64,000 nt of DNA from Erodium maritimum. Taxonomy: Eukaryota > Streptophyta > Magnoliopsida > Geraniales > Geraniaceae. Shown here in pieces: positions 8,612 to 63,482 of this stretch (position 1 is its first letter; each line of letters opens with the position of its first letter). Both the position numbers and the translations under genes were made by a program. A model generated the notes under the pieces. It had not been told where the DNA came from and searched no databases. It saw only the letters and a list, made by a program, of their open reading frames with translations. Location: positions 28,189,730 through 28,253,729 of the forward strand of contig OY997592.1 in the NCBI GenBank assembly GCA_963921825.1, in the 5' to 3' direction.

Positions 8612-8623
8612 TTCAAATCTAAA

Positions 8624-10145: not shown

Positions 10146-10293
10146 TGGACGACTGATCATTTCAGATCGCTTTGGACCTTCCGGAATTGTAACAGGAATT
10201 GGTTCTTACTCTACTACCATCTCTGGCTCCCTTTCTACTGGGTTGTCAACTTGTTTAGACGGATTTGTACCATCCTGAATTTCTTCGAGATGA

Positions 10294-10640: not shown

Positions 10641-10702
10641 TAATCATGGAACGGGCCATTGTCTAACAATATCCGATTTCTCCGTTTGGCTACACCTTTC
10701 AA

Positions 10703-13165: not shown

Positions 13166-14057
13166 AGTTTTAATTAATTATTTTAATTAATTTTAAATGG
13201 GAGTTTTAAACGGATTTAAATCGGAGGATTCAAATGACTGAATCGGTAAAATTAAAGGACTGAACTGACAAAATTAGAGGATTGTTACGAACTGGACCGT
13301 GACTGATTACCGTCCTTTTGTTAAACCTAGGCTTGGACCTCGATCGTGGAGAAGATCGGAGGTAGGCCCAAACGTCAGCAGCTAGGAGACGCAACTGTTG
13401 GTTCTTCTTGAGGTAGGGAAAGTAGCGAATATCGGTTTAATTACAGAAAGTTACTAGTATGCATGTTAGGTAATATTAAAACTGGAATGAACGTTTATAT
13501 TATAAAAATAACCGGACGAGTCTTAGTAATATGTAGGATGTGATTCACTAGTGTTAGCCTCTTTCGATATTCTGGGAAATTGTCGTGCTAGTAGAATGGC
13601 CATGTCGAGCCGTAGGTTGTGTGCTGATTGAAATGCCTGATCTGTTTGAGACGCATGTTGTGTGACTTAGTGTCGTTAAGTTTAAGAGTCAAAGCATTTT
13701 TATATTCGGTGTAACATGTTGTTGCTATGCATGGGCAAGTGTGTCGTGACTGTTATGATTTGAATCATTGGTTGTGATATTGTCGGTGAGTGATAGACCG
13801 ACGTGTCATGTGATTGTGGTAAGATTGTGAGTTTGGTGAGACGTATTTGATCTATGGCATTACGATGCGTGTTATTATCTTGATGTGTGTTCCAAAAGGA
13901 TTGTGTTCCGGTACGGTACCTACACCGAGGGGATGTGCCGGTGTAGGGTAGCAACTATGCCGACGATGTGGTCCCACGTATGCGCGGTCCCCCGGTATGT
14001 TATTCTGGTACGATGCCTACATCGAGGGGGTATGCCGGTGTAGGACATCTAGGCCGA

Positions 14058-14252
14058 CGGTTTGTGTTGGGCCTACGGGTCATATTGGGCCGACGGGCCA
14101 TATTGTGATTGGGCCTACGGGTCGTGTTGGGCATACAGGTCGTGTTGGGCCTACGGGTCGTATTGGGCCGACGGGCCATATCATATTGGGCCTACGGGTC
14201 GTGTTGGGCCTACGGGTCGTGGTTGGGCCTACGGGTCGTGTTTCTACCCCAA
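14058..14252 (+). repeat. 18-bp minisatellite in solo LTR C
   Basis: About nine to ten units of GGGCCTACGGGTCGTGTT and variants (TTGGGCCGACGGGCCATA). The unit length is a multiple of three, so it translates as collagen-like GPTGRV repeats, but it lies in an LTR. The related LTR at 17912-20789 lacks the array. Confidence 0.85.
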
Positions 14253-14919
14253 TGATCTATGGTCATTTGGGGACATTTCCGGGCCCCTCAATGAGATGCG
14301 TTCCTAGAGAACGTTTCCGGTCGCCCCGACGCATGTGTCTCCTCTGGACCGAGGGGCTGTCCGAGATGATACGACGACTTTCTGGTATAATATGTTGGAG
14401 TTCGGGGACTACGGTACGGGACGTTTATTGGTTGCTTTTGTGTGTGATGTGTGTGCTGTTCGGTTAATGTATTATTGTGTGAAAGCGGTCGCTTGAGTAT
14501 GTTGTAAGTTTGGCTATGAACCCCGGGTTGGCAGTTAGGTATGTTGTACTAGTATGCCCTACTTGGACGGTTACTCATGGTGGTGAGCCGTTGTTCATTA
14601 CCTTAACTACTTTCTCTACTGGGCGAAAGCTCACACCTTACCTCGTTGTGTTTCAGGTGTTGAACGGGATCTGTGCTAGTAGGACACAGCTGAGCTTGGG
14701 AGCTGGCGAGGGTCTTGTCTAGTAGGTCTAGAGACGTGCAGTTGTTTTTGAACTATTTACTGTTTTTACGGTTTCTTAAGAGTTGTTGACTCTTTTAATC
14801 GAATCTATGAAATTACAGTATTATTATTTTTTAAGCTTTATTACCTTAATTTTCGCTTTATATATTATTATTTTAGTTCACGTCTCGAGTCCGGTCAAAA
14901 CCGGATTTGGGGCGTGACA

Positions 14920-16458
14920 GTTTTTTAATGACAAACTATTAATGTTCGCTGAATTTTCCATTTGATCTACAACAGATAAAATTCAATCTGTAAACTGAAT
15001 AAATGTTATAAAGATCAAGCTTAAACACCAACAATCGATTCTAAACCTTTAGAATCTGAAACAAAGATCCTTGATTCACTCGATTAAGCTGAACTAATGC
15101 TCACCACTTAATCGAGCTATGTAGGTAGGACTCCATCCAATCACTCTTGGCTAGGGTATGTACTTATGTACATGACTTACCCTATATGTTACCCTAGCTC
15201 AACCTCAGGCTGAGAATCGTAGTCGGGTCCACCAATTTTCAACTATGGCCTGTCACTATGTAGGTGCTCCGTTAATGCGCACGACACCCACATATGTCGT
15301 CCAAAACTACTACCACGCTTTCCCATGGATGCTACGCTAATGCGCACGACACCCATAGGATGAGGAGGTAGTAAGGTGTTGATAATTGGGAGGTATCGGA
15401 CATGACCCGTTTTTACTTGTCTGGTTGTGTTTAAAACTTTGGCACATCCTAGATGCGATGAGCACATCAACTACATTCCAAATGCAATGATACCTCAAAT
15501 TACATCCAATGTAATTCTTCCTTCGAACCCGTCAACTACATCCAATGTAATGACGGTTCTAAGGGCTCACAAACAAGGAATAAAATTTCAATTTTATCTT
15601 TGCATGTGAGGTGATATGCTCGGTAAATAAAGTTAAAGCATGCAATTCTAAAACAAATAGAATTAATCATGTATAAACTAAACCAAGCATAAAGCGATAA
15701 ATGTGCACATAATATCCCCCTTAACTAACTCCCACTAGCTTCTTGAGCTCCACCGACTCCAAACCGATGCCAACACCCGAAAAGCAACCAAATGACCTTT
15801 TCGCCCTTTCTTCCTCTTGAGAAAAATATTACAATTTAATACACGACTCGCAGGTCGAGAATAAATAAATATTACAAATAAGTGGTTCGACGACCACACC
15901 TTGAAAGAATAATTACACGCTAACTCTAACGGCTCGCAGGCTGTGAAAAGCGATAAATAATTAAAACGAGTTCGGGCTATAATGTGCATCATGCCAACAT
16001 CACATCACACATCGTGTTATCAAACAATCATGTGATTTTCCGGTTTTATTTAATAGCCAAGTTTCGATTTTTTTTGATGTTCGGTCTATCCAAACCGTTC
16101 AAAAATGATACTTTTCAACATTTGATCTTCGAGTTCGTCATGACGGTTCCAAATTCATCATAACTAACAAAACGGTTTGTCCTTGACATATCAACCATCC
16201 AATGGTCATGCTTGGCCTAGCTCCGTCCAACGGAGCCCCGTTCGGTCCCGGTTTCGGCTCCCCGAGAGTCCCGCTCCCGAGACCCAAAAAATCAAACTTT
16301 TTCAAAACATTCCAGATTTGAAATAATTTTCAAAAATTCATTTTACATGCATTGAATCCATAAACAAGAACTTAAAACATGTTATCAAACAAGTTGGCAA
16401 ATTAACATGTCAAAACCGAAACTTTCAACACCGTCTTGTGAATCCCGAAGGTAGCACG
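14920..16458 (-). other. 5' leader of copia D1
   Basis: Untranslated leader between primer site and gag, closely matching 56715-58257 of element A in reverse. It holds two copies, about 65 bp apart, of a repeat beginning TGGGTGTCGTGCGCATTA on the minus strand (near 15280 and 15350), and several copies of ATTACATTGGATGTA. No conserved coding frame. Confidence 0.75.
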
Positions 16459-16470
16459 GCTCTGATACCA
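16459..16470 (-). other. Primer-binding site of copia D1
   Basis: On the minus strand TGGTATCAGAGC, complementary to the 3' end of initiator-methionine tRNA, one base from the LTR boundary at 16472. Confidence 0.9.
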
Positions 16471-16471
16471 C

Positions 16472-17701
16472 TGTTGGGTCTCGAGGTAGGGTTGGAGATG
16501 AACCAAATCGTAGCGGAAAATCAATGAAAACCAAGAGACGATTAAAACCATTAAACAACTAACAAAGAATGGATTCACAAGAGAAAAATTCAGCACTATT
16601 TCTTACCAAAACAAGAACACCGGTTAACGAATGATTGGCTTGAGTCTCCAAGACGCCTACGTATCCACATGAGAATCAAAGCCACGTAGTTCTTCTCTCT
16701 GAGGACTCAAGAACACAAAAATGGAGGTGGGAGCTTGCCAAACCCGAAATTGTATGGAGAGAGGGAGAGAAGTTGTGTTTCCTATTCTTGTCTTGTGTTT
16801 GTTATGTTGGAAAAAGATGACTTAAACATAACAAACTCCATACTTGTCCAACTAAATGCATGGGACAAGTATGGTGTCAAGTAAGGTGTAAATAGGACAA
16901 AGTATGGCTAGACAAGATGAGGTTAGGTGGTGAATCACCAACACCTTAATCCTTGTCTTGCTTACTTAGTACTAATTAATCAAGACTTGATTAATTAGTT
17001 CCATGGGCCTTGGTTTCATGGGCCTCTCATGGGCTTCTTGGAACATGGCCCTTGGCCATTCCCAACGAGGTCCCGTGATGCGCTCATCGCCTCCAAACCT
17101 TCCATACCGAAAATGTACAACATTATCCGACGCGGTCAATCCCAAGACTCCAAGCCTTGTCTCGATTCGTAATGTCCTATTCATTTGCGGGCACATGACC
17201 CAAAACCCAGTTTTGGTCATGTCCCGAGACAACTCCCTTTTGGCCATTCTCCATAAATGTGCCAAGGAGTTTTACCCTCCGGTGTGACCCTTAGGTTTAC
17301 GCATGTCAATAGATCAACGTAAAATCTCATTTTACTTGATCCTATTTAAGTGGAAACTAACGAGACTTTAGTATTGCCTGACACTGCATAACGAATCGAC
17401 CCTGTCGATTCTAACCTTTTCGTCGTCCCTCTCATTATCCTCTTTATCTCCGATATCCTGATTGAGATAAGGCATAGAGCCGTCATACTTATTATTCTCA
17501 ATCATTGTTCCTTGATATGTGAGATGACTGAATATATAATACCCAATATCATGTGCATGGCCATGTTATTCTTTTAGTCACTCTCGATCAAGCGGCCGAG
17601 AACCGATATCTTTCCCATACCGTAGTATGAGGGATAAATCCCTTAGTCGTCTTTCGTGTCACTCATGCAGTTCGTCCCCAAGCCAATTCTGGCCGTTATG
17701 G
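16472..17701 (-). repeat. 5' LTR of copia D1, truncated
   Basis: Begins (in window direction) TGTTGGGTCTCGAGG and matches the family LTR for about 1,230 bp, then stops at GGCCGTTATGGAA where gypsy leader sequence starts. About 450 bp of LTR are missing. Confidence 0.85.
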
Positions 17702-17895
17702 AAACCCTGCACAGATAAACAAGGACCACAATACTCAATAGTTCAACCAACAACCAAACCGAGACTTTCTCGTCTCGTTCATACGCTTAGGACATCTCTA
17801 AATGGCGTAACCGACTTATCGACACTTGACTGCCTAACTCTACCCACCTAATTGACGTACGGTCCGAGGTTTGAAAACATTTTCAAATGAAACCA

Positions 17896-17910: not shown

Positions 17911-17911
17911 T

Positions 17912-20789: not shown

Positions 20790-21316
20790 TGCAGCATCCA
20801 TGTACTTGGCCTCTGGCGTAGATTCTACAATGCTAACTTGCTTTACGCTCTCCCAGTTAAAGCTTTGTTATTCAGCGTAAACACATATCCTGACTGACTT
20901 CTAAAGTCATCTGATTTGTCTTGGAAAACTAGCGTCTACTCATCCTTCGACGCCTAGTTCAACATCATCTTTCCCTCGGGTTAGACTGATGTCTACTAGT
21001 ACAACATAAGGCTTACAAGACATTCGGTCTCGTACATGTCATGGCATATATGATCGATCCTGCCCCTAGGCGCATGGGATTCACATCATTCTTTTCAGCT
21101 CATCAGGTGTCTTAGCACACTGAGTCTTGCTGATATGAATGCCATGACTAGTGGGTAAGAGTCCTTTCTTTGAATCGAGCATTGAGAACCTACTCAATGC
21201 CTTGTTCACATAGGTTCCCTAACTTAAATCCAAGACGCTCTTGGTGCGATCTCTACATATCTTAATCCCTAAGATATACGAAGCATCGCCTAAGTCCTTT
21301 ATTAAAAAATACTTCC

Positions 21317-21994
21317 TCAACCAAGCTTTAGTCTCGTGCAATGTTGGGATGTCGTTTTCAATGAGAGCCAAAAAGGTAATCTTGCTCCCACTAGCCTTCT
21401 ATAAACGCAAGATTCATCCTCGTTCTTTATTAAGCCAAATCCAATTATAGCTTCATCAAAACGAAGGTTCCAACTTCGAGAAGCTTGTTTCCATCCATAA
21501 ATGGATTTCAACAACATACAAATCTTTCCCTTATTCTTCGGATCGACAAAACCTTCTGGTTGAGACATAAAACGTCCTCAGTCAAACTTCCATTTAGGAA
21601 AGCGGTTTTGACATCCACTTGTCATATCTAGTAATTATGATACGCAGTTATGTCAAGAAGAATTTGGATCGATTTTGACCATAGCCACTAGGGAGAAGGT
21701 TTCCTCATAGTCAATCCATTGGATCTGCCTATAACCTTTCGCCACCAGTCGAGCTTTGTAGGTCAGAGGGTTTCTGTCCATGTTCATCTTCACCTTGAAG
21801 ATCGATTTGCATCCGATGGTCCTCACACCATTGATGGGATCAACCAATTCCCAGACTCGGTTGTCCAACATGGATTGCATTTCCTCCCTCATGACTCTCA
21901 GCCATAACTCGGAGTCGGGCCCATCCGCGACTTCCTGAAAGGTGGCTGGATCATCGTGATCCACCATGACTTCATTCTCACCTCCGGATACCAT
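21317..21994 (-). pseudogene. Copia reverse transcriptase, D2, YVDD deleted
   Basis: The 113-codon frame 21994-21653 holds the N-terminal RT block (DNRVWELVDPINGVRTIGCK, then YKARLVAKGYRQIQWIDYEE). A frameshift leads to the block ending at 21317 (EGFVDPKNKGKICMLL...). As in D1 and A, FLAL runs directly into IENDIPTL, so the catalytic YVDD is absent. Confidence 0.85.
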
Positions 21995-22113
21995 ATCTTG
22001 GAGGTGGACGACTGATCCTTTCAGATCGCCTTGGACCTTCCGGAATTGTAATAGGAATTGTTTCTTACTCTACGACCATCTCTGGCTCCCTTTCTACTGG
22101 GTTGTCAATTGGT

Positions 22114-22806
22114 TTAGACGGATTTGTACCATCCTGAATTTCTTCGAGATGCACAGTCCTCCCAATGACGTCTTTGGAAACAAAACTCCTTTTCCATAAT
22201 GACCCCACCCCAAGCGACGAACACCATGTTCTCACTGGGTTTATAAAAGTAGTATCCCCTTGTTGCTTTGGGATACCACACGAAGGTGCATATCTTAGAT
22301 CTTGGTTCGAGCTTAGTCGAAACCAAATGTTTCACATAAGCCTCGCAACCACAAATCTTTAGGAAGGACAAAGCGGGCATCTTCCCATGCCATTTCTAAG
22401 ATGGTGTCCCTTCCACAGCCTTCGTCGGAGCCCGATTCACTATGAATGCGGTCGTCTCTAGAGCATAACCCAAGAAAGAGATTGGGAGATCAGTCCAACT
22501 GATCATGGATCGGATCGTATCCAATAAAGTCTGATTTCTCCGCTCGTACACAACATTCAACTGCGGTGTTCCGGGAGGAATCCATTATGAAAAAATCCCG
22601 CTCTCCACCAGATGATCTAAAAACTCTGTGTTTAAGTATTTTCCACTTTGATTAAATCGAAGTGTCTTAATACTTTTCCCGAGACGGTTTTCTACTTCAG
22701 TCTTGAACTCTTTGAATTCATCGAAAGATTCAGACTTATGTCTCATCAAATAGACATAACCATATTAACTGTAATCAACAGTAAATGTAATAAAGTAGCT
22801 AAAACC
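22114..22806 (-). pseudogene. Copia integrase C-terminal fragment, D2
   Basis: The frame 22380-22114 reads LSFLKICGCEAYVKHLVSTKL and YPKATRGYYFYKPSENMV, the region linking integrase to reverse transcriptase. From 22380 to 22806 decayed integrase core sequence can be followed against D1, with more substitutions than in the RT part. Confidence 0.75.
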
Positions 22807-23657
22807 TCTTCAATCTGATTATTGATCTTCTTGTGGAGAGGCCTGACGGATACTTTACAGGTCTCTACCAATCTGACCCGCAAGTTTGTCCCTATCTCGG
22901 CAACATGTGATATATGCGGGAGAGAACCTGAGACAGTGGATCACCTATTTCTCGAATGTGGCTTCGCTAAGACGTGATGGGCGCATGCGGGTGATCTTAT
23001 CCCGCACGACCTTGGGGGGACATTTGTGCAATTGTGGGGGAGGATCAAGAGAGGGAGGTCCCGGGATAAGGTGGTGGAAATCCTATATATCCTATGGGAA
23101 ATCAGGAAAGCTCGAAATGAGCTCAAATGGAGAGGGACGGCCCTGACAACCTTGAGGGTCATTCCCTCAGCGGCCGCACATCTCTAGGCGTGGAGGGAAG
23201 CGAAGGACGCCACCCCGCAACCTCAGCACACACCTTCTATTTGGCCGGCGAATTGGACGCGACCTCCCCCAAGTACGGTTGTTATCAATGTGGATGTGGT
23301 TGTCTTTCAAGATACTCAACAGTCCACTTGGTGCCTTATTGTTAGGGATCACAATGGTACAGTCCGATTGGTTGCAAACAATACCCTCCTGGGGGTCTGG
23401 GAACCACTGATGATAGAAGCATGTGCCCTAGCGACAAACCTGAAAAATTCCCCGAGCTTGGGGCCCAATATCATTATCCGCTCAGATGCCTAGTTTCTAC
23501 TTAACCTCATCGCCACGGGCGACCCACCAGTATCGCCTATTGGGACATTCATCATGGACATTCAGGAGCTTATTTCTCACCAAGAGGGGACTACCCTTCA
23601 ATTTGTAAAAAGAATTGCGAACAGGGCGTCCCATTGGTTTGTCAGAGAGGCTCGTTC
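22807..23657 (+). pseudogene. LINE ORF2 C-terminus: zinc-binding RT region plus plant RNase H-like domain
   Basis: First comes the reverse-transcriptase zinc-binding region: CDICGREPETVDHLFLECGF (from 22906), matching the C-x2-C...H-x4-C pattern. The following frames read LWGRIKRGRSRDKVVEILYI and WEIRKARNELKW. Then a plant RVT_3-type RNase H domain: INVDVVVFQDTQQSTWCLIV, EACALATNL, IIIRSDA, and FVKRIANRASHWFVREA to 23650. Stops (TGA in the zinc region, TAG at about 23491 where Gln is usual) and frame changes make it inactive. Confidence 0.82.
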
Positions 23658-49167: not shown

Positions 49168-50608
49168 TTAAATATCGAAACTTATTCTTATGTATTGGTC
49201 AAGAACAGTACACTAACATCTACTCCTATTATGACTTTTCTTTCTGCAGAGGCGAATCCTACTGGTTCACCTTCTCCTTTGCGCCACCTCCGTCGGCACC
49301 CACTGTGGCTCCGGCCACGAGGGCTACCGGTGGAGCTCTTCCCCACCGCTGCTGTACCCAACTTTCTCCCGTTTCTGTCTACTCCGTCCGTCCTCCCCGA
49401 GCGTCCACCGGAGCACAGCCGACCTTGTATCGCCGCAACCCCTCTCCGGCCATCTCTGCCCTCCGCTCAAGTTGTTGCCCCTCATCCTCGCTGGGCAGAT
49501 CTAGCGACCCAGCACTCTAGCCCGTCAGATCTGCTGGAAAAACAACGCACCGACACACCCTCAGCCCCTACCGACACCACCGGCGTTGGCCTCTTTGTTG
49601 ACGACTGCGACCGACTCATCTGCCCCCTGATATATACCCCCAAGATGATGTTCTTCCACCTCGTCGGTCGGATCTGCCGGCCTAACACTCAAGTCGGCCA
49701 AATCTGCAAGTAAAGCTCTCCGCTACTACGCCCCATGCCGACGGTGGCCGACCTTTTAACGACGACGAAGACCCAAGCGCCTCCGATCGAGGCTCCTTGC
49801 CACGCTTTTCTGGTAAGGCGGTCAGATCTGCTCCTATTTTTCGCCGGAGATCCGCAGTCCGAGCCATTCAGTTATGCTCCTACATATTATGCTCTCCCGA
49901 CCAGTCTCGTGCATCCGCCTCAATAGGATCAGATCTGTGCTCGTCGGCGCCGCCCACCTCTCCCCCTCGCTCTGATCCTAGCCCCCGACATCAAATTCCG
50001 GTCGAAAGTAGCTCGTGGTCGTCGTTTGTTGTTTATTTTATTTGTAGTTTTGTATGTTCTCGTTTGTAGCCCCTACTGGAATCTTGGATATCCGGTAGAT
50101 GTGGATGTTGCCTTTGTTGGCGTGTTTGGTCGGCTCTTTCCATCGGCAGATCTCTCCGGAGAGTCGATAAGAAACACCGACCTGGTAGTTGTTTATCTAG
50201 GCGTTGCGTCGTCTTTTCTGAGAGTTACTCATCTCGCTGGTCATCCATCGAATATCCGAAAATGACCCGTGGATGCAACGCTTGTTTTATTTGGTCTAAT
50301 TTTTAAGGTTTGTTAATTTATTAATGAATATTTCCGTTCAACAAAAGCACAGTACATTACCAACGATTTAAAATGACAAATGCACTACCTTAAGTATTGA
50401 TCACGCAATTCATTTAGTAAAATTGGACGGAATATTCCATTTTGTTAGTCATATAACCTAATGTGTCGTTTAATGGGTAGTCAAATGACGATTTTCTCTT
50501 ACTTATTTGACCTCTATACATTTTATAAGGAACAGTAACAGGGAATAATGGTAATGTTGCTTATACAATGTATAGAGGTCAAATAAGTAAGGGTAAAATC
50601 ATCATTGT
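49168..50608. mobile_element. Fold-back MITE, copy 2 (reversed), split by a LINE-like insertion and truncated
   Basis: The outer end GTTAAATATCGAAACTTA (49168 on) matches, in reverse, the right end of copy 1. Sequence continues to CAGTACACTAACA at 49217, is interrupted, and resumes at about 50349 with AATGACAAATGCACTACC and the arm TAGTAAAATTGGACGGAATA near 50417. The second arm stops at about 50608, where copia LTR DNA begins. Confidence 0.75.
49218..50348 (+). mobile_element. LINE-like retroelement insertion in MITE copy 2
   Basis: A GC-rich segment with Pro/Ser/Arg-rich frames (49195-49713 and others) followed by a T-rich 3' part ending TTTATTAATGAATATTTCCGTTCAACAAAA. It is bounded by an imperfect duplication, ACAGTACACTAACA (49204-49217) and ACAGTACATTACCA (50349-50362). 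The structure fits a non-LTR retroelement whose coding part is lost or which is non-coding. No reverse-transcriptase motif is visible. Confidence 0.5.
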
Positions 50609-51549
50609 TAGAATCGACAGGGTCGATTCGTTATGTAGTGTCAGGCAATACTAAAGTCTCGTTAGTTGCCACTTAAATAGGATCAAGTAAAATGGGATTT
50701 TACGTTGATCTATTGACATGCATAAACCTAAGGGTCACACCGGAGGATGAAACTCATTGACACATTTATGGAGAATGGCCAAAAGGGAGTTGTCTCGGGA
50801 CATGACCAAAACTGGGTTTTGGGTCATGTGCCCGTAAGTGAATAGGACTTTACGGATCGAGACAAGGCTTGGAGTCTTGGGATTGATCGCGTCGGATAAT
50901 GTTGGACATTTCCGGTATGGAAAGCTTGGAGGCGATGAGCGAATCACGGGACCTCGTTGGAAATGGCCACGGGCCATGTTCCAAGAGGCCCATGAAAGGC
51001 CCATGCAACCAAGGCCCATGCAACTAATTAATCAAGTCTTGATTAATTAGTACTAAGTAAGCAAGACAAGGATTAAGGTGTTGGTGATTCACCACCTAAC
51101 CCAATCTTGTCTTGCCATACTTTGTCCTATTTACACCTTACTTGACACCATACTTGTCCCATGCCTTTAGTTGGACAAGTATGGGTTTTGTTATGTTTAA
51201 GTCATCTTTTTTCAACATAACAAACACAAGACAAGAATAGGAAACACAACTTCTCTCTCCCTTCCCTTGCAATTTCGGGTTTGGCAAGCTCCCACCTCCA
51301 TTTTTGTGTTATTGAGTCCTCAAAGAGAAGAACTACGTGGCTTTGATTCCCATGTGGATACGTAGGCGTCTTGGAGACTCAAGCCAATCATTCGTTACCC
51401 GGTGCTCTTGTTTTGGTAAAGCTAGTGCTGAATTTTTCTCTTGTGAATCCATTCTTTGTTAGTTGTTTCATGGTTTTAATCGTCTCTTGGTTTTCCTTGA
51501 TTTTCCGCTGCGAGTTGGTTCATCTCCAACCCTACCTCGAGACCCAACA
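50609..51549 (+). repeat. 5' LTR of copia A', 5'-truncated
   Basis: Starts within the LTR at TTAGAATCGACAGGGTCG, so the first ~745 bp are missing; it ends ACCCAACA at 51549. Confidence 0.85.
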
Positions 51550-51550
51550 G

Positions 51551-51562
51551 TGGTATCAGAGC
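51551..51562 (+). other. Primer-binding site of copia A'
   Basis: TGGTATCAGAGC one base after the LTR, complementary to initiator-methionine tRNA. Confidence 0.9.
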
Positions 51563-52486
51563 CGTGCTACCTTCGGGATTCACAAGACGGTGTTCAAAGT
51601 TTCGGTTTTGCTTGAAAGTTTCGTTTTTGGCATGTTGTTATGCTAAATTGTTTGATAACATGTTTTAAATTCTTGTTTATGGATTTAATGCATGTAAAAT
51701 GAATTTTTGAAAATTATTTCAAATCTGGAAATTTTGAAAAAAAAAAAAATTCGAGTCTCGGGAGCGGGACTCTCGGGGAGCCGAAACCGGGACCGAACGG
51801 GGCTCCGTTGGACGGAGCTAGGCCAAGCATGACCATTGGATGGTCGATATGTCAAGGCTAAACTGTTTTTTCAGTTATGACGAGTTTGGAACCGTCATGA
51901 CGAACACAAAAATCAAATGCTCAAAAGTTTCATTTTGAACGGTTTCGATAAACCGAGCATCAAAAAAAAATTCGAAACTTGGCAATTAATTAAAACCGGA
52001 AAATCACATGATGTTTGTTAACATGCTTGTTTGATAACACGATGTGTGATGTGTTGTTGGCATGGTGTACATAATAGCCCCGAGCTCGATTTAATTATTT
52101 ATCGCTTTTCACGGCCTGAAAGCCGTTAAAGTTAGCGTGTAATTTTTCTATCAAGGCGTGGTCATCGAACCACTTGTTTGTAATATTTATTTATTCCCGA
52201 CCTGCGACAACACCATCCAGCCCGGTGAATCCATCTTGCGACAACACAAGGGCCATTGCGCAAGCTAAAAGCCTAGATCGTATAACAAATCCAAACATGT
52301 ACTGCGGCGTATCCACCTCATCAGATAAATACTGAACTGAGGTGAAGTGAAGATAACCGATATTGCAACAGATGATAACATAGCCAACCCTTTGACTAAG
52401 GCAGTGTCACTGCCTGAACATGTTAGACATGTAAAGTCGATGGGGACATATTGGTGTTTAGATTGGAACTAGGGCAAGTGGGATAT
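51563..52486 (+). other. Leader fused to RNase H tail in copia A'
   Basis: The leader follows element A up to CCCGACCTGCGA, then continues with CCATCCAGCCCGGTG of RNase H. TGCGACAACAC at the joint (52203-52213) is repeated at 52237-52247, suggesting repair with a short templated filler. A purine tract GGGCAAGTGGGATAT precedes the 3' LTR. Confidence 0.8.
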
Positions 52487-54173
52487 TGTTAGTCTTAGTG
52501 CCCGTAGTTCAATCCTAAATGTCCAAATGTATATATCATCGTTAGCAATAAAATTAAAGCGGCTTTATATTACTTATGTGTTGGAGTAATAAATCGATGT
52601 GTGCTCTGATCTATGCCCACCATGCGAATAGAACCATAGATCGAGATAGATCACACTCGATGAGTCCCTAGTCAACAAAGCTTCACTAGAAGCGACTAGT
52701 ATGAAAGATGGCTCTTTATGGCTTACGTTCTGTTAGTCATTGGAATGGGATTCCGGAGTCTGATCATAGATATCATGTGGGACATGATATTGGACGACCC
52801 GCCCTGAATATGTGCCATAGATTAAGTCATGAACATATTCAGTGTTGTAGCTTGTCATGTATCCTTAGACCAAGGAGTCTTTGTGATCGCTATGTAGTCA
52901 ACAACTGAGTTTGACCTGAGCCTAACGTTGTCCGTAACAGGGCTTCCATAACGGCCAGGATTGGCTTGGGGATGGGCTACATGAGTGACACAAAAGACGG
53001 CTAAGGGATTTATCCCTCATACTAAGGTATGGGAAAGATATCGGTTCTCGGCCGCTTGATCGAGAGTGACTGAAAGAATAGCATGGCCATGCACATGATA
53101 CTGGGTATCATATCTTCAGTCATCTCACATATCAAGGAACGGTGATTGAGAATAATAAGGATGACGGCTCTATGCCTTATCTCAATCAGGATATCGGAGA
53201 TAAAAGGATAATGACAGGGACGACGGAAAGGTTAGAATCGACAGGGTCGATTCGTTATGTAATGTCGGGCAATACTAAAGTCTCGTTAGTTGCCACTTAA
53301 ATAGGATCAAGTAAAATGGGATTTTACGTTGATCTATTGACATGCATAAACCTAAGGGTCACACCGGAGGATGAAACTCATTGACACATTTATGGAGAAT
53401 GGCCAAAAGGGAGTTGTCTCGGGACATGACCAAAACTGGGTTTTGGGTCATGTGCCCGTAAGTGAATAGGACTTTACGGATCGAGACAAGGCTTGGAGTC
53501 TTGGGATTGATCGCGTCGGATAATGTTGGACATTTCCGGTATGGAAGGCTTGGAGGCGATGAGCGAATCACGGGACCTCGTTGGAAATGGCCACGGGCCA
53601 TGTTCCAAGAGGCCCATGAAAGGCCCATGCAACCAAGGCCCATGGAACTAATTAATCAAGTCTTGATTAATTAGTACTAAGTAAGCAAGACAAGGATTAA
53701 GGTGTTGGTGATTCACCACCTAACCCAATCTTGTCTTGCCATACTTTGTCCTATTTACACCTTACTTGACACCATACTTGTCCCATGCCTTTAGTTGGAC
53801 AAGTATGGGTTTTGTTATGTTTAAGTCATCTTTTTTCAACATAACAAACACAAGACAAGAATAGGAAACACAACTTCTCTCTCCCTTCCCTTGCAATTTC
53901 GGGTTTGGCAAGCTCCCACCTCCATTTTTGTGTTATTGAGTCCTCAAAGAGAAGAACTACGTGGCTTTGATTCCCATGTGGATACGTAGGCGTCTTGGAG
54001 ACTCAAGCCAATCATTCGTTACCCGGTGCTCTTGTTTTGGTAAAGCTAGTGCTGAATTTTTCTCTTGTGAATCCATTCTTTGTTAGTTGTTTCATGGTTT
54101 TAATCGTCTCTTGGTTTTCCTTGATTTTCCGCTGCGAGTTGGTTCATCTCCAACCCTACCTCGAGACCCAACA
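52487..54173 (+). repeat. 3' LTR of copia A' (1,687 bp)
   Basis: TGTTAGTCTTAGTGCCCG...CTCGAGACCCAACA, complete and the same length as both LTRs of element A. Confidence 0.92.
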
Positions 54174-55009: not shown

Positions 55010-55014
55010 CCCTT

Positions 55015-56701
55015 TGTTAGTCTTAGTGCTCGTAGTTCAATCCTAAATGTCCAAATGTACAAATCATCGTTAGCAATAAAATTAAAGCGGCTTTATATTA
55101 CTTATGTGTTGGAGTAATATATCGATGTGTGCTCTGATCTATGCCCACCATGCGAATAGAACCATAGATCAAGATAGAACACACTCGATGGGTCCCTAGT
55201 CAACAAAGCTTCACTAGAAGCGACTAGTATGAAAGATGGCTCTTTATGGCTTACGTTCTGTTAGTCATTGGAATGGGATTCCGGAGTCTGATCATAGATA
55301 TCATGTGGGACATGATATTGGACGACCCGCCCTGAATATGTGCCATAGATTAAGTCATGAACATATTCAGTGTCGTAGCTTGTCATGTATCCTTAGACCA
55401 AGGAGTCTTTGTGATTGCTATGTAGTCAACAACTGAGTTTGACCTGAGCCTAACGTTGTCCGTAATAGGGCTTCCATAACGGCCAGGATTGGCTTGGGGA
55501 CGGGCTACATGAGTGACACGAAAGGCGGCTAAGGGATTTATCCCTCATACTGAGGTATGGGAAAGATATCGGTTCTCGGCCGCTTGATCGAGAGTGACTG
55601 AAAGAATAGCATGGCCATGCACATGATACTGGGTATCATATCTTCAGTCATCTCACATATCAAGGAACGGTGATTGAGAATAATAAGGATGACGGCTCTA
55701 TGCCTTATCTCAATCAGGATATCGGAGATAAAAGGATAATGACAGGGATGACGGAAAGGTTAGAATCGACAGGGTCGATTCGTTATGCAGTGTCAGGCAA
55801 TACTAAAGTCTCGTTAGTTGCCACTTAAATAGGATCAAGTAAAATGGGATTTTACGTTGATCTATTGACATGCATAAACCTAAGGGTCACACCAGAGGAT
55901 GAAACTCATTGACACATTTATGGAGAATGGCCAAAAGGGAGTTGTCTCGGGACATGACCAAAATTGGGTTTTGGGTCATGTGCTCGTAAGTGAATAGGAC
56001 TTTACGGATCGAGACAAGGCTTGGAGTCTTGGGATTGATCGCGTCGGATAATGTTGGACATTTCCGGTATGGAAGGCTTGGAGGCGATGAGCGAATCACG
56101 GGACCTCGTTGGAAATGGCCACAGGCCATGTTCCAAGAGGCCCATGAAAGGCCCATGCAACCAAGGCCCATGGAACTAATTAATCAAGTCTTGATTAATT
56201 AGTACTAAGCAGGCAAGACAGGGATTAAGGTGTTGGTGATTCACCACCTAACCCAATCTTGTCTTGCCATACTTTGTCCTATTTACACCTTACTTGACAT
56301 CATACTTGTCCCATGCCTTTAGTTGGACAAGTATGAGTTTTGTTATGTTTAAGTCATCTTTTTTCAACATAACAAACACAAGACAAGAATAGGAAACACA
56401 ACTTCTCTCTCCCTTCCCTTGGAATTTCGGGTTTGGCAAGCTCCCACCTCCATGTTTGTGTTCTTGAGTCCTCAAAGAGAAGAACTACGTGGCTTTGATT
56501 CCCATGTGGATACATAGCCGTCTTGGAGACTCAAGCCAATCATTCGTTAACCGGTGTTCTTGTTTTGGTAAGAAATAGTGCTTAATTTTTCTCTTGTGAA
56601 TCCATTCTTTGTTAGTTGTTTCATGGTTTAATCGTCTCTTGGTTTTCATTGATTTTCCGCTGCGAGTTGGTTTATCTCCAACCCTACCTCGAGACCCAAC
56701 A
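55015..56701 (+). repeat. 5' LTR of copia A (1,687 bp)
   Basis: TGTTAGTCTTAGTGCTCG...CTCGAGACCCAACA. Contains a near-central perfect palindrome (arms ACTAATTAATCAAG and its complement, one-base spacer) at about 56175-56203, present in all family LTRs. Open frames of 66 and 70 codons (sense) and 94 codons (antisense) recur in the copies but lack protein support. Confidence 0.95.
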
Positions 56702-56702
56702 G

Positions 56703-56714
56703 TGGTATCAGAGC
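56703..56714 (+). other. Primer-binding site of copia A
   Basis: TGGTATCAGAGC one base after the LTR, complementary to initiator-methionine tRNA. Confidence 0.93.
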
Positions 56715-58257
56715 CGTGCTACCTTCGGGATTCACAAGACCGTGTTCAAAGTTTCGGTTTTGCTTGAAAGTTTCGTTTTTGGCATGTTGTTTTGCTAAAT
56801 TGTTTGATAACATGTTTTAAATTCTTGTTTATGGATTTAATGCATGTAAAATGAAATTTTGAAAATTATTTCAAATTTGGAAATTTTTAAAAAAAATTGA
56901 TTTTTCGGGTCTCGGGAGCGGGACTCTCGGGGAGCCGAAACCGGGACCGAACGGGGCTCCGTTGGACGGAGCTAGGCCAAGCATGACCATTGGATGGTTG
57001 ATATGCCAAGGCTAAACCGTTTTGTTAGTTATGACGAGTTTGGAACCGCCATGACGAACTCGAAGATCAAATGTTCAAAAGTTTCATTTTTGAACGGTTT
57101 CGATAAACCGAGCATCAAAAAATTTCGAGACTTGGCTATTAATTAAAACCGGAAAATCACATGATGTTTGATAACATGCTTGTTTGATAACACGATGTGT
57201 GATGTGATGTTGGCATGGTGTACATAATAGCCCCGAGCTCGATTTAATTATTTATCGCTTTTCACGGCCTGCGAGCCGTTAGAGTTAGCGTGTAATTATT
57301 CTTTCAAGGTGTGGTCGTCGAACCACTTGTTTGTAATATTTATTTATTCCCGACCTGCGAGTCGTGTATTAAATTGTAATATTTTACTCAAGACGAAGAA
57401 AGGGCGAAAAGGTCATTTGGTGGCTTTTCGGGTGTTGGCATCAGCTTGGAGTCGGTGGAGCTCAAGAAGCTAGTGGGAGTTAGTTTAGGGGGCTATTATG
57501 TGCACATTTATCGCTTTATGCTTGGTTTAGTTTATGCATGATTAATTCTATGTGTTTTAGAATTGCATGCTTAACTTTATTTACCGAGCATATCACCTCA
57601 CATGCAAAGATAAAATTGGAATTTTAATCCTTGTGTGTGAACCCTTAGAACCGTCATTACATTGGATGTAGTTGACGGGTTCAAAGGAAGAATTACATTG
57701 GATGTAATTTGAGGCATCATTGCATTTGGAATGTAGTTGATGTGCTCATCGCATCTAGGATGTGCCAAAGTTTTGAACACAACTGGACAAGTAAAAGCGG
57801 GTCATGTCCGATACCTCCCAATCATCAACACCTTACTACCTCCCCGTCCTATGGGTGTCGTGCGCATTAGCGGAGCATCCATAGGGAAGCGGGGTAGTAG
57901 GTTTGGACGACATATGTGGGTGTCGTGCGCATTAGCGGAGCACCTACATAGTGACGGGCCATAGTTGAAAATTGGTGGACCCGACTACGATTCTCAGCCT
58001 GAGGTTGAGCTAGGGTAACAGATAGGGTAAGTTGTGTACATAAGTGCATACCCTAGCCAAGAGTCACATTGGATGTGATTGGATGGAGTCCTACCTACAT
58101 AGCTCGATTAAGTGGTGAGCATTAGTTCAGCTTAATCGAGTGAATCAAGGATCTTGGTTTCAGATTCTAAAGGTTTAGAATTGATTGTTGGTGTTTAAGC
58201 TTGATCTTCATAGAATTTATTCAGTTTACTTATTGAATTTTATCTGTTGTAGATCAA
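56715..58257 (+). other. Long 5' leader of copia A
   Basis: About 1.5 kb of untranslated leader. It has a 26-bp direct repeat (beginning TGGGTGTCGTGCGCATTAGC at 57852 and 57917, 65 bp apart) and several ATTACATTGGATGTA-type words between 57650 and 58080. Both are kept in the D1 leader. Their position suits RNA packaging or dimerisation signals, which is inference only. Confidence 0.7.
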
Positions 58258-58620
58258 ATGGCAAATTCAGCGAACATTAATAGTTTATCATTAAAAACCA
58301 TTCTTGACAGGGTCAAGCTAAATGGGACAAACTATTTGGACTGGTATAGAATTTTGAGGATAGTCCTCAAGTATGAACGCAAAGAATATGTCCTTGACAA
58401 GGCTGTCTCTAAGACCATATCAGAGTTACATGAAGTGTCATTAACTGCTGAGAAGAATATCTCAGGGATCTGGGATCCAAGGATATTCTGATGGTCATCA
58501 AGGGAATTGGAAGTGGCAAGGGCTGGGCCCATACGCACTTGGCCGGAAAGATGAGACACCTGAGAATGTCTGCTTCTACTGCCAACAACCTGGTCATTGG
58601 AACCGGGATTACAGGAAGTT
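58258..58620 (+). pseudogene. Truncated gag of copia A
   Basis: Starts MANSANINSLSLKTILDRVK (a typical TNT1-like gag N-terminus) through NYLDWYRILRIVLKYERKEY, then joins directly to the gag C-terminal words TISELHEVSLTAEKNI, so most of the capsid domain (roughly a hundred residues or more) is missing. A frameshift gives a stop at 58489-58491. The zinc knuckle at 58571-58612 reads CFYCQQPGHWNRDY: the fourth ligand is Tyr instead of Cys. D1 has the same internal joint and the same Tyr. Confidence 0.85.
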
Positions 58621-58632
58621 CACGGCTGATCT

Positions 58633-58770
58633 GAAGAAGGGCAGTGGGACTGCGCCTTCATCAAATAGCCTGGATGATCTGAAGAAGGGCAGTAGGACTG
58701 CGCCTTCATCAGGAAACCTGGATGATCTAAGGACGGGCGGTGGGACCGTGCCTTCATTCGGTATTAACTC
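58633..58770 (+). repeat. 48-bp (16-residue) tandem repeat between gag and protease
   Basis: Three units, starting at 58633, 58681 and 58729, each coding for a DLKKGSGTAPSS-like linker. D1 has the same three units in reverse near 11620-11750. Confidence 0.85.
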
Positions 58771-59675
58771 TATAGAGCTACATCTCTCTACTTCCAAAGA
58801 TTCATGCGTATTAGATACCATGACTGAATCTCACACATGCACTAATATATGGTGGCTGAAAGTAGGAGAGATTTGGAATGCACGAAATGGACCTCATAGT
58901 TGTGGCAACTGCTGTAGGATCCATGAGTCTTGCTTTGCCAAGAGGTCTTGTCTTAGTATTGTATAATGTATATTGCATACCTACTTTTAGTAGGAATATT
59001 ATATCTGTATCCGTGTTTGACAAGGAAGGATATAATGTTAATATTGGAAATGGAGTTTTCAATGTTCTATGCAATGATATGTTTTATACCAGTACTGACA
59101 TGGTTGGAGGATTGTACATATTAGATATGGGTAACAATGCCTCAAGTTCTATATATTCTGTTAATACCAAGAGGTCTAAATCCAACGATTTAAACCTAAC
59201 TCTGTTATGGTACTGTCATTTGGGTCGCATAAACAAAAAGCGCCTATCAGCACTTCAGAAGTGCGGGCTTTCAGGTTCATTCGAATTCCATTCGATCGAT
59301 AGGTGCAAGGTTTGTTTGATGGGCAAAATGACTAAAGTGCCCTTTATCGATCGCGATGAAAGGGCGGGTGAATTATTGGGGCTGATACACTCGAATGTGT
59401 GTAGACCAATAAGTTCACTTGCCAGGAGGGGTTTTAGCTATTTTATCACATTTACTGATGATTACAGTAAATATGGTTATGTCTATTCGGTGAGACATAA
59501 GTCTGAAGCTTTTGATAAATTCAAAGAGTTTAAGACTATAGTAGAAAACCAGCTCGACAAAGGTATTAAGGCACTTCGATTGGATCGAGGTGGAAAATAC
59601 TTGACCACAGAGTTATTAGATCATCTAAAAGAGAATGGGATCCTTTTGGAATGGACTCCTCCTAGGTCACTGTAG
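58771..59675 (+). pseudogene. Protease and integrase of copia A
   Basis: The protease active site, normally DTGC, reads DTMT (58813-58824) after STSKDSCVL, so it is dead. The frame 58878-59675 (265 codons) covers pre-integrase (YNVYCIPTFSRNIISVSV) and integrase. In the HHCC zinc site LLWYCHLGRI both His positions are replaced. The first catalytic Asp is Asn (IHSNVCRP, codon 59394-59396), the second is kept (LRLDRGGKY). The frame ends before the catalytic Glu. D1 shares the Asn and the Arg changes. Confidence 0.87.
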
Positions 59676-60213
59676 TTGAAAGGTGTAGCCAAACGGAGAA
59701 ATCGGACATTGTTAGACAGTGGTCTGTTCCATGATTAGTTGGACTGATCTCCCAATCTCTTTTAGGGGTTTTGCTCTAGAGACGACCGCATTCATATTGA
59801 ATCGGGATTCGACGAATGGTGTGGAAGGGACACCATTTTAAAAATGGTACGGGATGATGCCCGCTTTGTCCTTCCTAAAGATTTGTGGTTGCGAGGCTTA
59901 TGTGAAACATTTGGTTTCGACTAAGCTCGAACCAAGATCTGAGATATGCACCTTTGTGTGGTATCCCAAAGCAACAAGGGGATACTATTTCTACAATCCC
60001 AGTGAGAACATGGTGTTCGTCGCTTGGGGTGGGGTCTTTATGGAAAAGAAGTTTTGTTTCCAAAGACGTCATTGGGAGAGGACTGTGCATTTCTAAGAAA
60101 TTCAGGATGGTACAGATCTGTCTAAACCAATTGACAACCCAGTAGAAAGGAGCCAGAGATTGTCGTAGAGTGAGAACCAATTCCTGTTACAATTCCGGAA
60201 GGTCCAAGGCGAT
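59676..60213 (+). pseudogene. Integrase C-terminal region of copia A
   Basis: The frame 59854-60096 holds LSFLKICGCEAYVKHLVSTK and YPKATRGYYFYNPSENMV, the segment between integrase and RT. Before and after it, short matching pieces appear in other frames, showing several small deletions. Confidence 0.75.
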
Positions 60214-61078
60214 TTGAAAGGGTCAATCTTCCACCTCCAAGATATGGTATCCGGAGGTGACAATGAAGTCATGGTGGATCACGATGATCCAGCCACCTTT
60301 CAAGAAGTCGTGGATGGGCCCGACTCTGAGTTATGGCTGGGAGCCATGAGGGAGGAAATGCAATCCATGTCGGACAACCGAGTCTGGGAACCGGTTGATC
60401 CCATCAATGGTGTGAGGACCATCGGATGCAAATGGATCTTCAAGGTGAAGATGGACATGGACGGCAACCCTCTGACCTACAAAGCTCAACTGGTGGCGAA
60501 AGGTTATAGGCAGATCCAATGGATTGACTATGAGGAAACCTTCTCCCTAGTGGCTATGGTCAAAATCGATCCAAGTTCATCTTGACATAACTGCGTATCA
60601 TAATTACGAGATATGGAAAGTGGATGTCAAAACCGCTTTCCTAAATGGAAATTTGACTGAGTACGTTTGTATGTCTCGGCCCAAAGGTTTTGACGATCCG
60701 AAGAATAAGGGAAAGATTTATAAGTTATTGAAATCCATTTATGGATTGAAACGAACTTCTCGGAGTTGGATCCTTCGTTTTGATGAAGCTGTAATTGGAT
60801 TTGGCTTAATCAAGAACGAGGATGAATCTTGTGTTTATAAGAAGGCTAGTGGGAGCAAGATTACCTTTCTGGTTCTCATTGAAAACAATATCTCAACCTT
60901 GCACGAGACTAAAGCTTGGTTGAGGAAGTGTTTTTCAATAAAGGACTTAGGCGATGCTTCTTATATCTTATGGATTAAGATATGTAGATATCGCACCAAG
61001 AGGGTCTTGGATTTAAGTCAGGGAACCTATGTGAACAAGGCATTGAGTAGGTTCTTAATGCTCGATTCAAAGAAATGA
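60214..61078 (+). pseudogene. Reverse transcriptase of copia A, YVDD deleted
   Basis: First frame 60214-60585: LWLGAMREEMQSMSDNRVWE, GCKWIFKVKMDMDGNPLTYK, WIDYEETFSLVAM. One extra A in CAAAATCG (near 60562) breaks it; skipping it gives TAYHNYEIWKVDVKTAFLNG into the second frame, 60620-61078. There FLVL is followed at once by IENNISTL, while relatives have YVDDILL in between, so the catalytic aspartates are deleted in frame (about 60873-60885). The rest (SRSWILRFDEAVIGFGLIKN, then KDLGDASYILWIKIC) is well preserved. Confidence 0.9.
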
Positions 61079-61776
61079 CTCTTACCCACTAGTCATGGCA
61101 TTCATCTCAGCAAGACTCAGTGTCCTAAGACACCTGATGAGCTGAAAAGGATGATGAGAATCCTGTGCGCCTGGGGGCAGGATCAATCATATATGTCATG
61201 ACATGTATGAGACTGGACGTCTCGTGAGCCTTATGTTGTACCAGTAGACATCAGTCTAACCCGGTGGAAAGATGATGTTGAACTAGTCGTCGAAGGATGA
61301 GTAGACGGTAGTTTTCCAAGACAAATCCAGATGACTTTAGAAGTCAGTCAGGATATGTGTTTATGATGAATGGAAGAGCTTTAGCTGGGAGAGCGTAAAG
61401 CAAGATACCATAGCCGAATCTACGACAGGGGCCAAGTACATGGATGCTGCAGAGGCAGCTAAGGAGGCTATGTGGATTTGGAAATTCACGGCAGGGTTGG
61501 GTGTAATTAAAAATCCGTCCAGCCCGGTGAATCCATTTTGCGACAACACAAGGGCCATTGCGCAAGCTAAAAGCCCAAATCGCATAACAAATCCAAACAT
61601 GTACTACGGCGTATCCACCTAATCAGAGAAATACTGAACTGAGGTTAAGTGAAGATAACATATATTGCAATAGATGATAACATAGCCAACCCATTGACTA
61701 AGGCAGTGTCGCTGCCTAAACATGTTAGACATGTAAAGTCGATGGGGGGACATATTGGAGTTTAGATTGGAACTAG
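61079..61776 (+). pseudogene. RNase H region of copia A
   Basis: Pieces in shifted frames: HGIHLSKTQCPKTPDELKRM, SQSGYVFMLNG-like words, then TGAKYMDAAEAAKEAMWIWK and CDNTRAIAQAKSPNRITNPN, and finally ANPLTKAVSLPKHVRHVKSM before the purine tract. Several stops; part of the middle is deleted. Confidence 0.75.
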
Positions 61777-61790
61777 GGCAAGTGGGAGAT
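61777..61790 (+). other. Polypurine tract of copia A
   Basis: GGCAAGTGGGAGAT directly precedes the 3' LTR. Confidence 0.85.
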
Positions 61791-63477
61791 TGTCAGTCTT
61801 AGTGCTCGTAGTTCAATCCTAAATGTCCAAATGTACAAATCATCGTTAGCAATAAAATTAAAGCGGCTTTATATTACTTATGTGTTGGAGTAATATATCG
61901 ATGTGTGCTCTGATCTATGCCCACCATGCGAATAGAACCATAGATCAAGATAGAACACACTCGATGGGTCCCTAGTCAACAAAGCTTCACTAGAAGCGAC
62001 TAGTATGAAAGATGGCTCTTTATGGCTTACGTTCTGTTAGTCATTGGAATGGGATTCCGGAGTCTGATCATAGATATCATGTGGGACATGATATTGGACG
62101 ACCCGCCCTGAATATGTGCCATAGATTAAGTCATGAACATATTCAGTGTCGTAGCTTGTCATGTATCCTTAAACCAAGGAGTCTTTGTGATTGCTATGTA
62201 GTCAACAACTGAGTTTGACCTGAGCCTAACGTTGTCCGTAACAGGGCTTCCATAACGGCCAGGATTGGCTTGGGGACGGGCTACATGAGTGACACGAAAG
62301 GCGGCTAAGGGATTTATCCCTCATACTGAGGTATGGGAAAGATATCGGTTCTCGGCCGCTTGATCGAGAGTGACTGAAAGAATAGCATGGCCATGCACAT
62401 GATACTGGGTATCATATCTTCAGTCATCTCACATATCAAGGAACGGTGATTGAGAATAATAAGGATGACGGCTCTATGCCTTATCTCAATCAGGATATCG
62501 GAGATAAAAGGATAATGACAGGGATGACGGAAAGGTTAGAATCGACAGGGTCGATTCGTTATGCAGTGTCAGGCAATACTAAAGTCTCGTTAGTTGCCAC
62601 TTAAATAGGATCAAGTAAAATGGGATTTTACGTTGATCTATTGACATGCATAAACCTAAGGGTCACACCAAAGGATGAAACTCATTGACACATTTATGGA
62701 GAATGGCCAAAAGGGAGTTGTCTCGGGACATGACCAAAACTGGGTTTTGGGTCATGTGCCCGTAAGTGAATAGGACTTTACGGATCGAGACAAGGCTTGG
62801 AGTCTTGGGATTGATCGCGTCGGATAATGTTGGACATTTCCGGTATGGAAGGCTTGGAGGCGATGAGCGAATCATGGGACCTCGTTGGAAATGGCCACGG
62901 GCCATGTTCCAAGAGGCCCATGAAAGGCCCATGCAACCAAGGCCCATGGAACTAATTAATCAAGTCTTGATTAATTAGTACTAAGCAAGCAAGACAAGGA
63001 TTAAGGTGTTGGTGATTCACCACCTAACCCAATCTTGTCTTGCCATACTTTGTCCTATTTACACCTTACTTGACATCATACTTGTCCCATGCCTTTAGTT
63101 GGACAAGTATGGGTTTTGTTATGTTTAAGTCATCTTTTTTCAACATAACAAACACAAGACAAGAATAGGAAACACAACTTCTCTCTCCCTTCCCTTGGAA
63201 TTTCGGGTTTGGCAAGCTCCCACCTCCATGTTTGTGTTCTTGAGTCCTCAAAGAGAAGAACTACGTGGCTTTGATTCCCATGTGGATACGTAGGCATCTT
63301 TGAGACTCAAGCCAATCATTCGTTAACCGGTGTTCTTGTTTTGGTAAGAAATAGTGCTGAATTTTTCTCTTGTGAATCCATTCTTTGTTAGTTGTTTCAT
63401 GGTTTAATCGTCTCTTGGTTTTCATTGATTTTCCGCTGCGAGTTGGTTCATCTCCAACCCTACCTAGAGACCCAACA
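61791..63477 (+). repeat. 3' LTR of copia A (1,687 bp)
   Basis: TGTCAGTCTTAGTGCTCG...CTAGAGACCCAACA. The same length as the 5' LTR; differences include T-to-C in the first few bases and C-to-A in CTCGAG near the end. Confidence 0.95.
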
Positions 63478-63482
63478 CCCTT

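What the first reader, a model, noticed from the sequence alone, without database searches (positions are those of the whole stretch)
55015..63477. A coding-dead copia lineage that appears to have multiplied with its lesions
Seen: element A (plus strand) and D1 (minus strand) share the same gag internal joint, Tyr at the last zinc-knuckle Cys, integrase Asp-to-Asn (IHSNVCRP / IHLNMCRP), Arg at the second zinc-site His, and direct FLVL/FLAL-to-IEN junctions lacking the seven codons YVDDILL; D2 also has the RT deletion. Known: YVDD and the first integrase Asp are essential. Inference: an already dead copy was the progenitor and was moved in trans by an autonomous relative, keeping intact LTRs, primer site and leader. 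A is young (LTRs about 1% apart), so the process was recent.
Basis: partly seen in the sequence, partly recalled or inferred. Interest (0 to 1): 0.72.

Follow-up and report, generated by a model that had tools for sequence, protein, structure and literature searches.

The report
Coding-dead copia family still multiplying
A plant mobile element whose own genes are all broken has nevertheless spread to thousands of places in its genome, very recently, apparently by borrowing the machinery of a related family that still has working-looking genes.

Summary
Element A (55015-63477) is a copia insertion with a CCCTT target duplication and LTRs differing at 18/1687 sites. A and D1 share the gag joint, zinc-knuckle Tyr, integrase His-to-Arg and Asp-to-Asn, and the seven-codon RT loss, plus a second integrase catalytic loss (Glu-to-Lys), a changed protease DTG, a stop, frameshifts and an RNase H deletion. 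Correction: D2 is no independent witness; its RT deletion lies in a 947-column tract identical to D1. In the whole genome the RT-deletion joint is at 4,773 places, a family-flanked intact YVDDILL at 856. Of 20 sampled deletion copies 16 have both LTRs, 14 of those have their own perfect 5-bp target duplication, and LTR pairs differ at 0-14 sites; the integrase Asp is lost in 19 of 19 readable. A sister family exists, one fetched copy open through gag-pol. It resembles the dead family most in U3 and leader (about 5-6% divergent), least in coding and R/U5 (about 9-25%). Help in trans is the best explanation; packaging and the helper's identity were not shown. The kind is known (BARE2-like parasitism); this is a strong new example.

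The parts
55015..63477 (+). Element A: full-length, coding-dead copia element
   Evidence: self-comparison, LTR pair and target duplication
55010..55014 (.). 5' copy of the target duplication CCCTT
63478..63482 (.). 3' copy of the target duplication CCCTT
55015..56701 (+). 5' LTR of A; the first ~1,250 bp (called U3 here) stay about 5% from the sister family, the rest (R/U5) 12-25%
   Evidence: the U3/R boundary is placed by the similarity drop, not by transcript data
61791..63477 (+). 3' LTR of A
   Evidence: 18/1687 differences from the 5' LTR
56703..56715 (+). primer-binding site TGGTATCAGAGCC (initiator tRNA-Met type, label recalled)
   Evidence: same site in sister L053 and L055
56716..58257 (+). 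leader, mostly 2-10% from the sister family
58258..58488 (+). gag remnant; deletion joint at about 58424|58425 (about 410 nt absent relative to the sister, read by eye)
   Evidence: joint seen in 18 of 18 readable sampled copies
58571..58612 (+). zinc knuckle with Tyr at the last Cys
   Evidence: Tyr in 18 of 18 readable copies
58814..58822 (+). protease active site DTG changed to DTM (DTR in D1)
   Evidence: Met 14, Arg 5 of 19 readable
59226..59228 (+). integrase zinc-site second His changed to Arg
   Evidence: Arg 19 of 19 readable
59394..59396 (+). integrase catalytic Asp changed to Asn
   Evidence: Asn 19 of 19 readable
   Evidence: Lys 18, Leu 1 of 19 readable
59673..59675 (+). TAG stop shared with D1
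   Evidence: stop in 18 of 19 readable
60854..60886 (+). RT active-site joint FLVL|IEN (60877|60878), seven codons YVDDILL absent
61250..61282 (+). RNase H deletion joint (about 77 nt absent relative to the sister)
6924..17708 (-). D1: older copy of the same dead lineage, 5' LTR truncated, split by an insertion at 12087-14921
20790..22809 (-). D2: mosaic pol fragment; its RT deletion lies in a tract identical to D1 (about D1 9011-9954 and D2 20870-21813)
50604..54173 (+). B: young deletion derivative of the same family (most of the coding region gone, 5' LTR cut down)

Best explanation
A belongs to a large non-autonomous copia family founded by an element that had already lost gag, protease, integrase, reverse transcriptase and RNase H function. 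Its RNA is made from its own LTR promoter, packaged and copied by proteins of a coexisting relative, most likely the sister family with open gag-pol, and integrated by that relative's integrase. New copies therefore inherit the lesions. Shown: the lesions, their sharing, separate integrations with target duplications, very recent LTR pairs, no sign of selection on the coding region, and a sister family with an open copy and similar U3 and leader. Inferred: transcription, packaging, reverse transcription and integration in trans, and the identity of the helper.
For: The RT-deletion joint occurs at 2,388 + 2,385 = 4,773 places, reversed-pattern control 0; intact YVDDILL with the family flank at 401 + 455 = 856, control 0. 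I fetched 20 of the 100 listed deletion places. Of the 20, 16 have two full LTRs, 14 of those 16 have a perfect and different 5-bp target duplication, and LTR pairs differ by 1,0,1,0,0,1,2,1,1,5,5,4,1,1,0,14 of about 1,688. Readable copies: Asn 19/19, Arg 19/19, Tyr 18/18, Glu lost 19/19. Three more loci picked as A-like LTR pairs on C9 and C4 carry the RT joint and the Asn, Arg and Lys changes, 3 of 3. No coding constraint is seen: changes by codon position 91/99/103 among the 20, and 33/32/31 for the 96 A-D1 differences in five open stretches of A, synonymous share 0.30 against 0.26 expected (0.18-0.34). Sister: 3 of 8 loci open for 830 aa or more from integrase to the end of pol; one of three longer loci has a 1,350-aa open stretch with all motifs sought, LTRs differing at 1/1676 and target duplication CCGAG. 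Dead (without D1) and sister differ at fixed sites in 15/525 of U3 but 225/2395 of coding (Fisher p 6e-8).
Against: No RNA, particle or transposition data. The 20 copies are zero-mismatch matches on one contig, from the top of the list, which favours young copies; the three further loci were chosen as LTR pairs 6.58-6.78 kb apart, which favours the deleted length. The gag-joint count over the genome did not complete. The 4,773 and 856 counts use patterns of different length and degeneracy and count places, not full elements. R/U5 of dead and sister differ by 12-25%, unexpected if all cis signals had to match the sister. Of the three longer sister loci, L053 is broken and L054 is open only in pieces. 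The eight sister copies alone show no significant coding constraint (24/29/40, p 0.12).
Confidence: 0.88

Rival explanations
1. The lineage is moved in trans, but by a more distant copia family rather than by the sister described here.
For: R/U5 of dead and sister differ by 12-25%; other copia families exist in the genome (a gag of another type flanks A).
Against: U3 and leader of the dead family are about 5-6% from the sister, LTR start and primer site are the same, and the sister has very young copies. No other family was compared.
Confidence: 0.15
2. A, D1, D2 and the other copies spread by segmental duplication or unequal recombination of DNA, not by transposition.
For: Tandem spacing at about 6.77 kb occurs (one search list); L027 and L030 border further family sequence and lack matching flanks, as does L057 on one side; D1-D2 tract identity.
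Against: 14 of 16 sampled copies with both LTRs have their own different 5-bp target duplication; A-D1 similarity stops at the shared 3' end of the element.
Confidence: 0.02
3. The lesions spread between old independent copies by gene conversion, and similar LTRs reflect conversion, not youth.
For: A 947-column identical D1-D2 tract shows exchange, or an assembly error, in this window.
Against: A-D1 divergence is even along the coding region (variance/mean 0.98, p 0.48); sampled copies have near-identical LTRs together with intact, different target duplications.
Confidence: 0.03
4. U3 and leader stay close to the sister because of selection on cis signals alone, with no recombination between the families.
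For: Both regions hold promoter and primer/packaging functions (recalled); D1's U3 is also close to the sister, so the similarity is old; in a U3 tree sister and dead copies do not intermix.
Against: About 1.25 kb of U3 is low nearly throughout, with an abrupt rise at R, which looks more like an exchanged block.
Confidence: 0.45

Closest known systems
BARE2, parasitic on BARE1 (barley; PMC3735527, passages read)
   Same: Copia lineage with a fixed inactivating deletion, replicative RNA packaged into the partner's particles, said there to predominate over the partner in barley genomes
   Different: BARE2 lacks the gag start codon but keeps a possibly translatable pol; here gag, protease, integrase, RT and RNase H are all broken. 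Packaging is shown for BARE2, not here
Non-autonomous Athila families of Arabidopsis (PMC2410132, passages read)
   Same: Whole families thought to be moved in trans; recombination between autonomous and non-autonomous members
   Different: Gypsy elements lacking pol, some keeping gag/env under selection; here the coding body is present but shows no selection
SNRE in soybean and Dasheng in rice (named in PMC3701649, passages read; original papers not read)
   Same: Non-autonomous LTR families thought to amplify with enzymes of other elements; LTR swapping is in the title of the soybean paper
   Different: SNRE is said to carry a foreign solo LTR inside; the internal structures of these families were not compared here
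LARD / TRIM elements (recalled)
   Same: Mobile with cis signals only
   Different: These lack recognisable coding sequence; here most of gag-pol is still recognisable

Membership tests
Copia LTR retrotransposon | Domain order gag-protease-integrase-RT | tested here: met
   integrase and RT above Pfam cut-offs; gag and protease placed by motif and by alignment to other copia loci, their Pfam matches being weak or below cut-off
Copia LTR retrotransposon | TG...CA LTRs, primer-binding site, 5-bp target duplication | tested here: met
Trans-mobilised parasitic lineage (BARE2-like) | Inactivating lesions fixed across many separate insertions | tested here: met
   full lesion sets seen in a sample of 20 + 3 copies only
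Trans-mobilised parasitic lineage (BARE2-like) | Coexisting coding-intact relative with related cis regions | tested here: met
Trans-mobilised parasitic lineage (BARE2-like) | RNA packaged into the partner's particles | not testable with these tools
   needs particle RNA
Trans-mobilised parasitic lineage (BARE2-like) | No selection on the coding region | tested here: met
LARD / TRIM | No recognisable coding domains | tested here: not met
   one search finds integrase, pre-integrase and RT domains above Pfam cut-offs
BARE/Angela lineage of copia | Placement by RT phylogeny | not tested
   only LTR length (about 1.7 kb) suggests it, from memory

The most novel reading that the evidence does not exclude
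A retroelement in which every protein function is lost has become the dominant form of its group by taking U3 and leader segments from the coding-intact sister. Promoter and packaging region follow the helper while R/U5 and the coding body drift, so the family renews itself as a parasite. The exchange would predate the split from D1, since D1's U3 is also close to the sister and the U3 tree shows no later mixing.
Probability: 0.3. Interest if true: 0.65.

Novelty: new member of a known kind. Interest (0 to 1): 0.52.

Why it matters
It is an unusually clear natural case for asking how far a retroelement can decay and still spread: gag and all enzymes are lost, thousands of places carry the mark, sampled insertions are near-present, and a coding-intact relative sits in the same genome. 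The alternation of similar (U3, leader) and dissimilar (R/U5, coding) segments points to which RNA parts a helper may recognise. It also warns that LTR age alone is no guide to whether an element is functional.

Tried and rejected
Viral contigs gave no relative: 0 of 23, 0 of 1 and 0 of 40 pattern stretches confirmed, and 0 exact LTR-PBS matches. Phage records: no match. Plasmid records: no DNA match, but by protein two records for RT and three for integrase; two of them look like plant copia contamination and gave an intact reference. 12 of 72 pattern stretches in bacterial or archaeal contigs also encode copia RT. PDB: no RT match, one convincing integrase.

Rejected: D2 as a third independent copy; D1 as the direct parent of A, because in a near-star LTR pattern most D1 changes are private to one D1 LTR; segmental duplication as the main process; a hidden function of the dead integrase frame (A-D1 differences 15/12/13 by codon position, 12 synonymous and 27 non-synonymous codons); a proper target duplication for B (flanks do not match). 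A hypermutation reading was not pursued: fixed sister-to-dead changes are G>A 58, C>T 37, A>G 31, T>C 25, which ordinary decay also gives. I did not obtain genome-wide counts of the gag joint or of the sister's gag.
Full report
What is there. A (55015-63477) is a complete copia insertion: 1,687-bp LTRs with 18 differences, TG...CA ends, a primer-binding site and a CCCTT target duplication. Integrase and RT pieces score above Pfam cut-offs; gag and protease are placed by motif and alignment. D1 (minus strand, 17708 to 6924) is an older copy, split by a 2.8-kb TG...CA insertion with an AAAAC duplication and lacking the first part of its 5' LTR. Its LTRs differ at 80/1215 sites, or about 51/1066 without one patch of 29/149. 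A and D1 differ at 228/3490 internal sites, evenly spread.

Shared lesions. Against a solved integrase (Ty1's, by recall) and public copia loci both A and D1 also lose the catalytic Glu (Lys). The protease DTG is DTM in A and DTR in D1; a TAG, frameshifts and an RNase H deletion are shared too. Relative to the sister family the gag deletion is about 410 nt with its joint near 58424|58425 (read by eye), and the RNase H deletion about 77 nt; internal lengths are 5,089 in A and 5,588 and 5,590 in two sister copies.

D2 is not independent. D1 and D2 are identical over 947 aligned columns that include the RT joint, yet about 6-17% apart elsewhere; the chance of this at 5-8% divergence is below 1e-20. 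D2 lacks the TAG and frameshift of A/D1 but has Lys at the integrase Glu site, outside the tract, so that lesion is either older or arose twice. Its left part is far from both dead and sister copies. Gene conversion or an assembly error are both possible.

Whole genome. The window's assembly has 763 Mb in 40 contigs. A's first 286 LTR bases gave 1,777 first-look candidates, of which 40 were scored; among the listed places seven pairs, the window's own included, lie 6,772-6,782 bp apart, as in A. The RT-deletion joint, up to 3 mismatches, is at 4,773 places with no hit for the reversed pattern. A 35-place pattern for intact YVDDILL plus the family flank is at 856 places. If all 4,773 were full length they would be about 40 Mb; this is an upper bound and my inference.

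Sampled copies. I fetched 20 of the first 23 of the 100 listed places, leaving out three near neighbours (all zero mismatch, contig C1). 16 of 20 have both LTRs complete; 14 of 16 have perfect, mutually different target duplications; the other two, L027 and L030, border further family sequence as in tandem arrays. LTR differences are 0 in four copies, 1 in seven, 2-5 in four and 14 in one; at a recalled rate of 1.3e-8 per site per year this is 0 to about 0.3 My. Lesions: integrase Asn 19/19 readable, Arg at the zinc site 19/19, zinc-knuckle Tyr 18/18, Glu lost 19/19 (18 Lys, 1 Leu), stop at 59673 in 18/19; gag joint 18/18 readable. The first zinc-site His is Tyr in 13 and His in 6 of 19, so this lesion looks younger. 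Three more loci, chosen on C9 and C4 as A-like LTR pairs (a choice that favours the deleted length), carry the RT joint, Asn, Arg, Lys and TAG, 3 of 3; one has target duplication CCTTT, one GGCCG/GGCCA, and one has a cut LTR and no match.

No coding selection seen. The 96 A-D1 differences in five open stretches of A fall 33/32/31 on codon positions; changes among the 20 copies 91/99/103. Fixed dead-sister differences are 63/57/109, so the sister side, or the time before death, was constrained. Among 8 sister copies the counts are 24/29/40, not significant by themselves.

The sister family. 8 loci with +-1.5 kb: YVDDILL in all by design, and a stretch open for 830 aa or more in 3 of 8; one of these, L049, matches RVT_2 and rve. 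Of three longer loci, L055 has one open stretch of 1,350 aa with all motifs sought and LTRs differing at 1/1676; L053 is broken, with LTRs differing at 13/1676; L054 is open only in pieces, shows no 5' LTR in the stretch fetched, and its one LTR is followed by another primer site. L053 and L055 have perfect target duplications.

Mosaic relation. Dead against sister: U3 mostly 2-9%, R/U5 12-25%, leader mostly 2-10%, coding 9-19% (whole-element profile from L053, LTR and leader also from L055). Fixed differences, D1 left out, are 15/525 in U3; in coding 225/2395 (p 6e-8). In the U3 tree sister copies form one group and dead copies another, with D1 outside both at the midpoint root, so there is no sign of recent mixing. 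D1's U3 is also close to the sister, so the similarity predates D1's insertion. An old exchange of segments, or selection on cis signals, could both give this.

Mechanism. An element without gag, protease, integrase catalytic residues or the RT active site cannot make its own copies (established knowledge of these enzymes). Because separate, recent insertions carry the same lesions, the template was already dead and the proteins came from elsewhere. The sister is the best candidate helper on sequence grounds only.

Known background. BARE2 is packaged in BARE1 particles (PMC3735527, passages); pol-less Athila families are thought to move in trans and do recombine (PMC2410132, passages); TARE1's authors cite SNRE and Dasheng as families moved by other elements (PMC3701649, passages). 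So the kind is known.

Noticed in passing
window 9011-9954 and 20870-21813 (approximate, minus strand): D1 and D2 share a 947-column identical tract inside otherwise diverged copies: recent gene conversion or an assembly error.
   Followed up: partly
L001, L002 (records NZ_CP115454.1, NZ_CP115302.1): Two records filed as actinomycete plasmids encode copia polyprotein; they look like plant DNA contamination. Twelve bacterial or archaeal contigs (L003-L014) also encode copia RT.
   Followed up: partly
window 50604-54173: Element B: LTR pair 4/943 different, most of the coding region deleted, 5' LTR cut between two GTTAG repeats. Its internal part differs from A by 49/929 although its 3' LTR differs from A's 5' LTR by only 39/1686, which suggests recombination.
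   Followed up: partly
G000 C1 42503046-42528914 and 14735614-14749168: RT joints mostly spaced about 6.77 kb: probable tandem LTR-internal-LTR-internal arrays of the dead family.
   Followed up: no
window 12087-14921 and 17709-20789: A TG...CA insertion in D1 (duplication AAAAC) and a partly similar (about 79%) inverted relative beside D2; possibly solo LTRs of another family.
   Followed up: no
window 54391-55017: A is inserted beside a gag reading frame of another type (Pfam Retrotran_gag_2), so probably inside another copia element.
   Followed up: no
window 31774-34784 and 37482-40664: A 3-kb duplicated block with 58-bp tandem repeats, copies about 91% alike.
   Followed up: no
D1 3' LTR, about LTR positions 1350-1500: A patch with 27-29 differences in 149 sites from the other LTRs, far above the rest of that LTR.
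   Followed up: no
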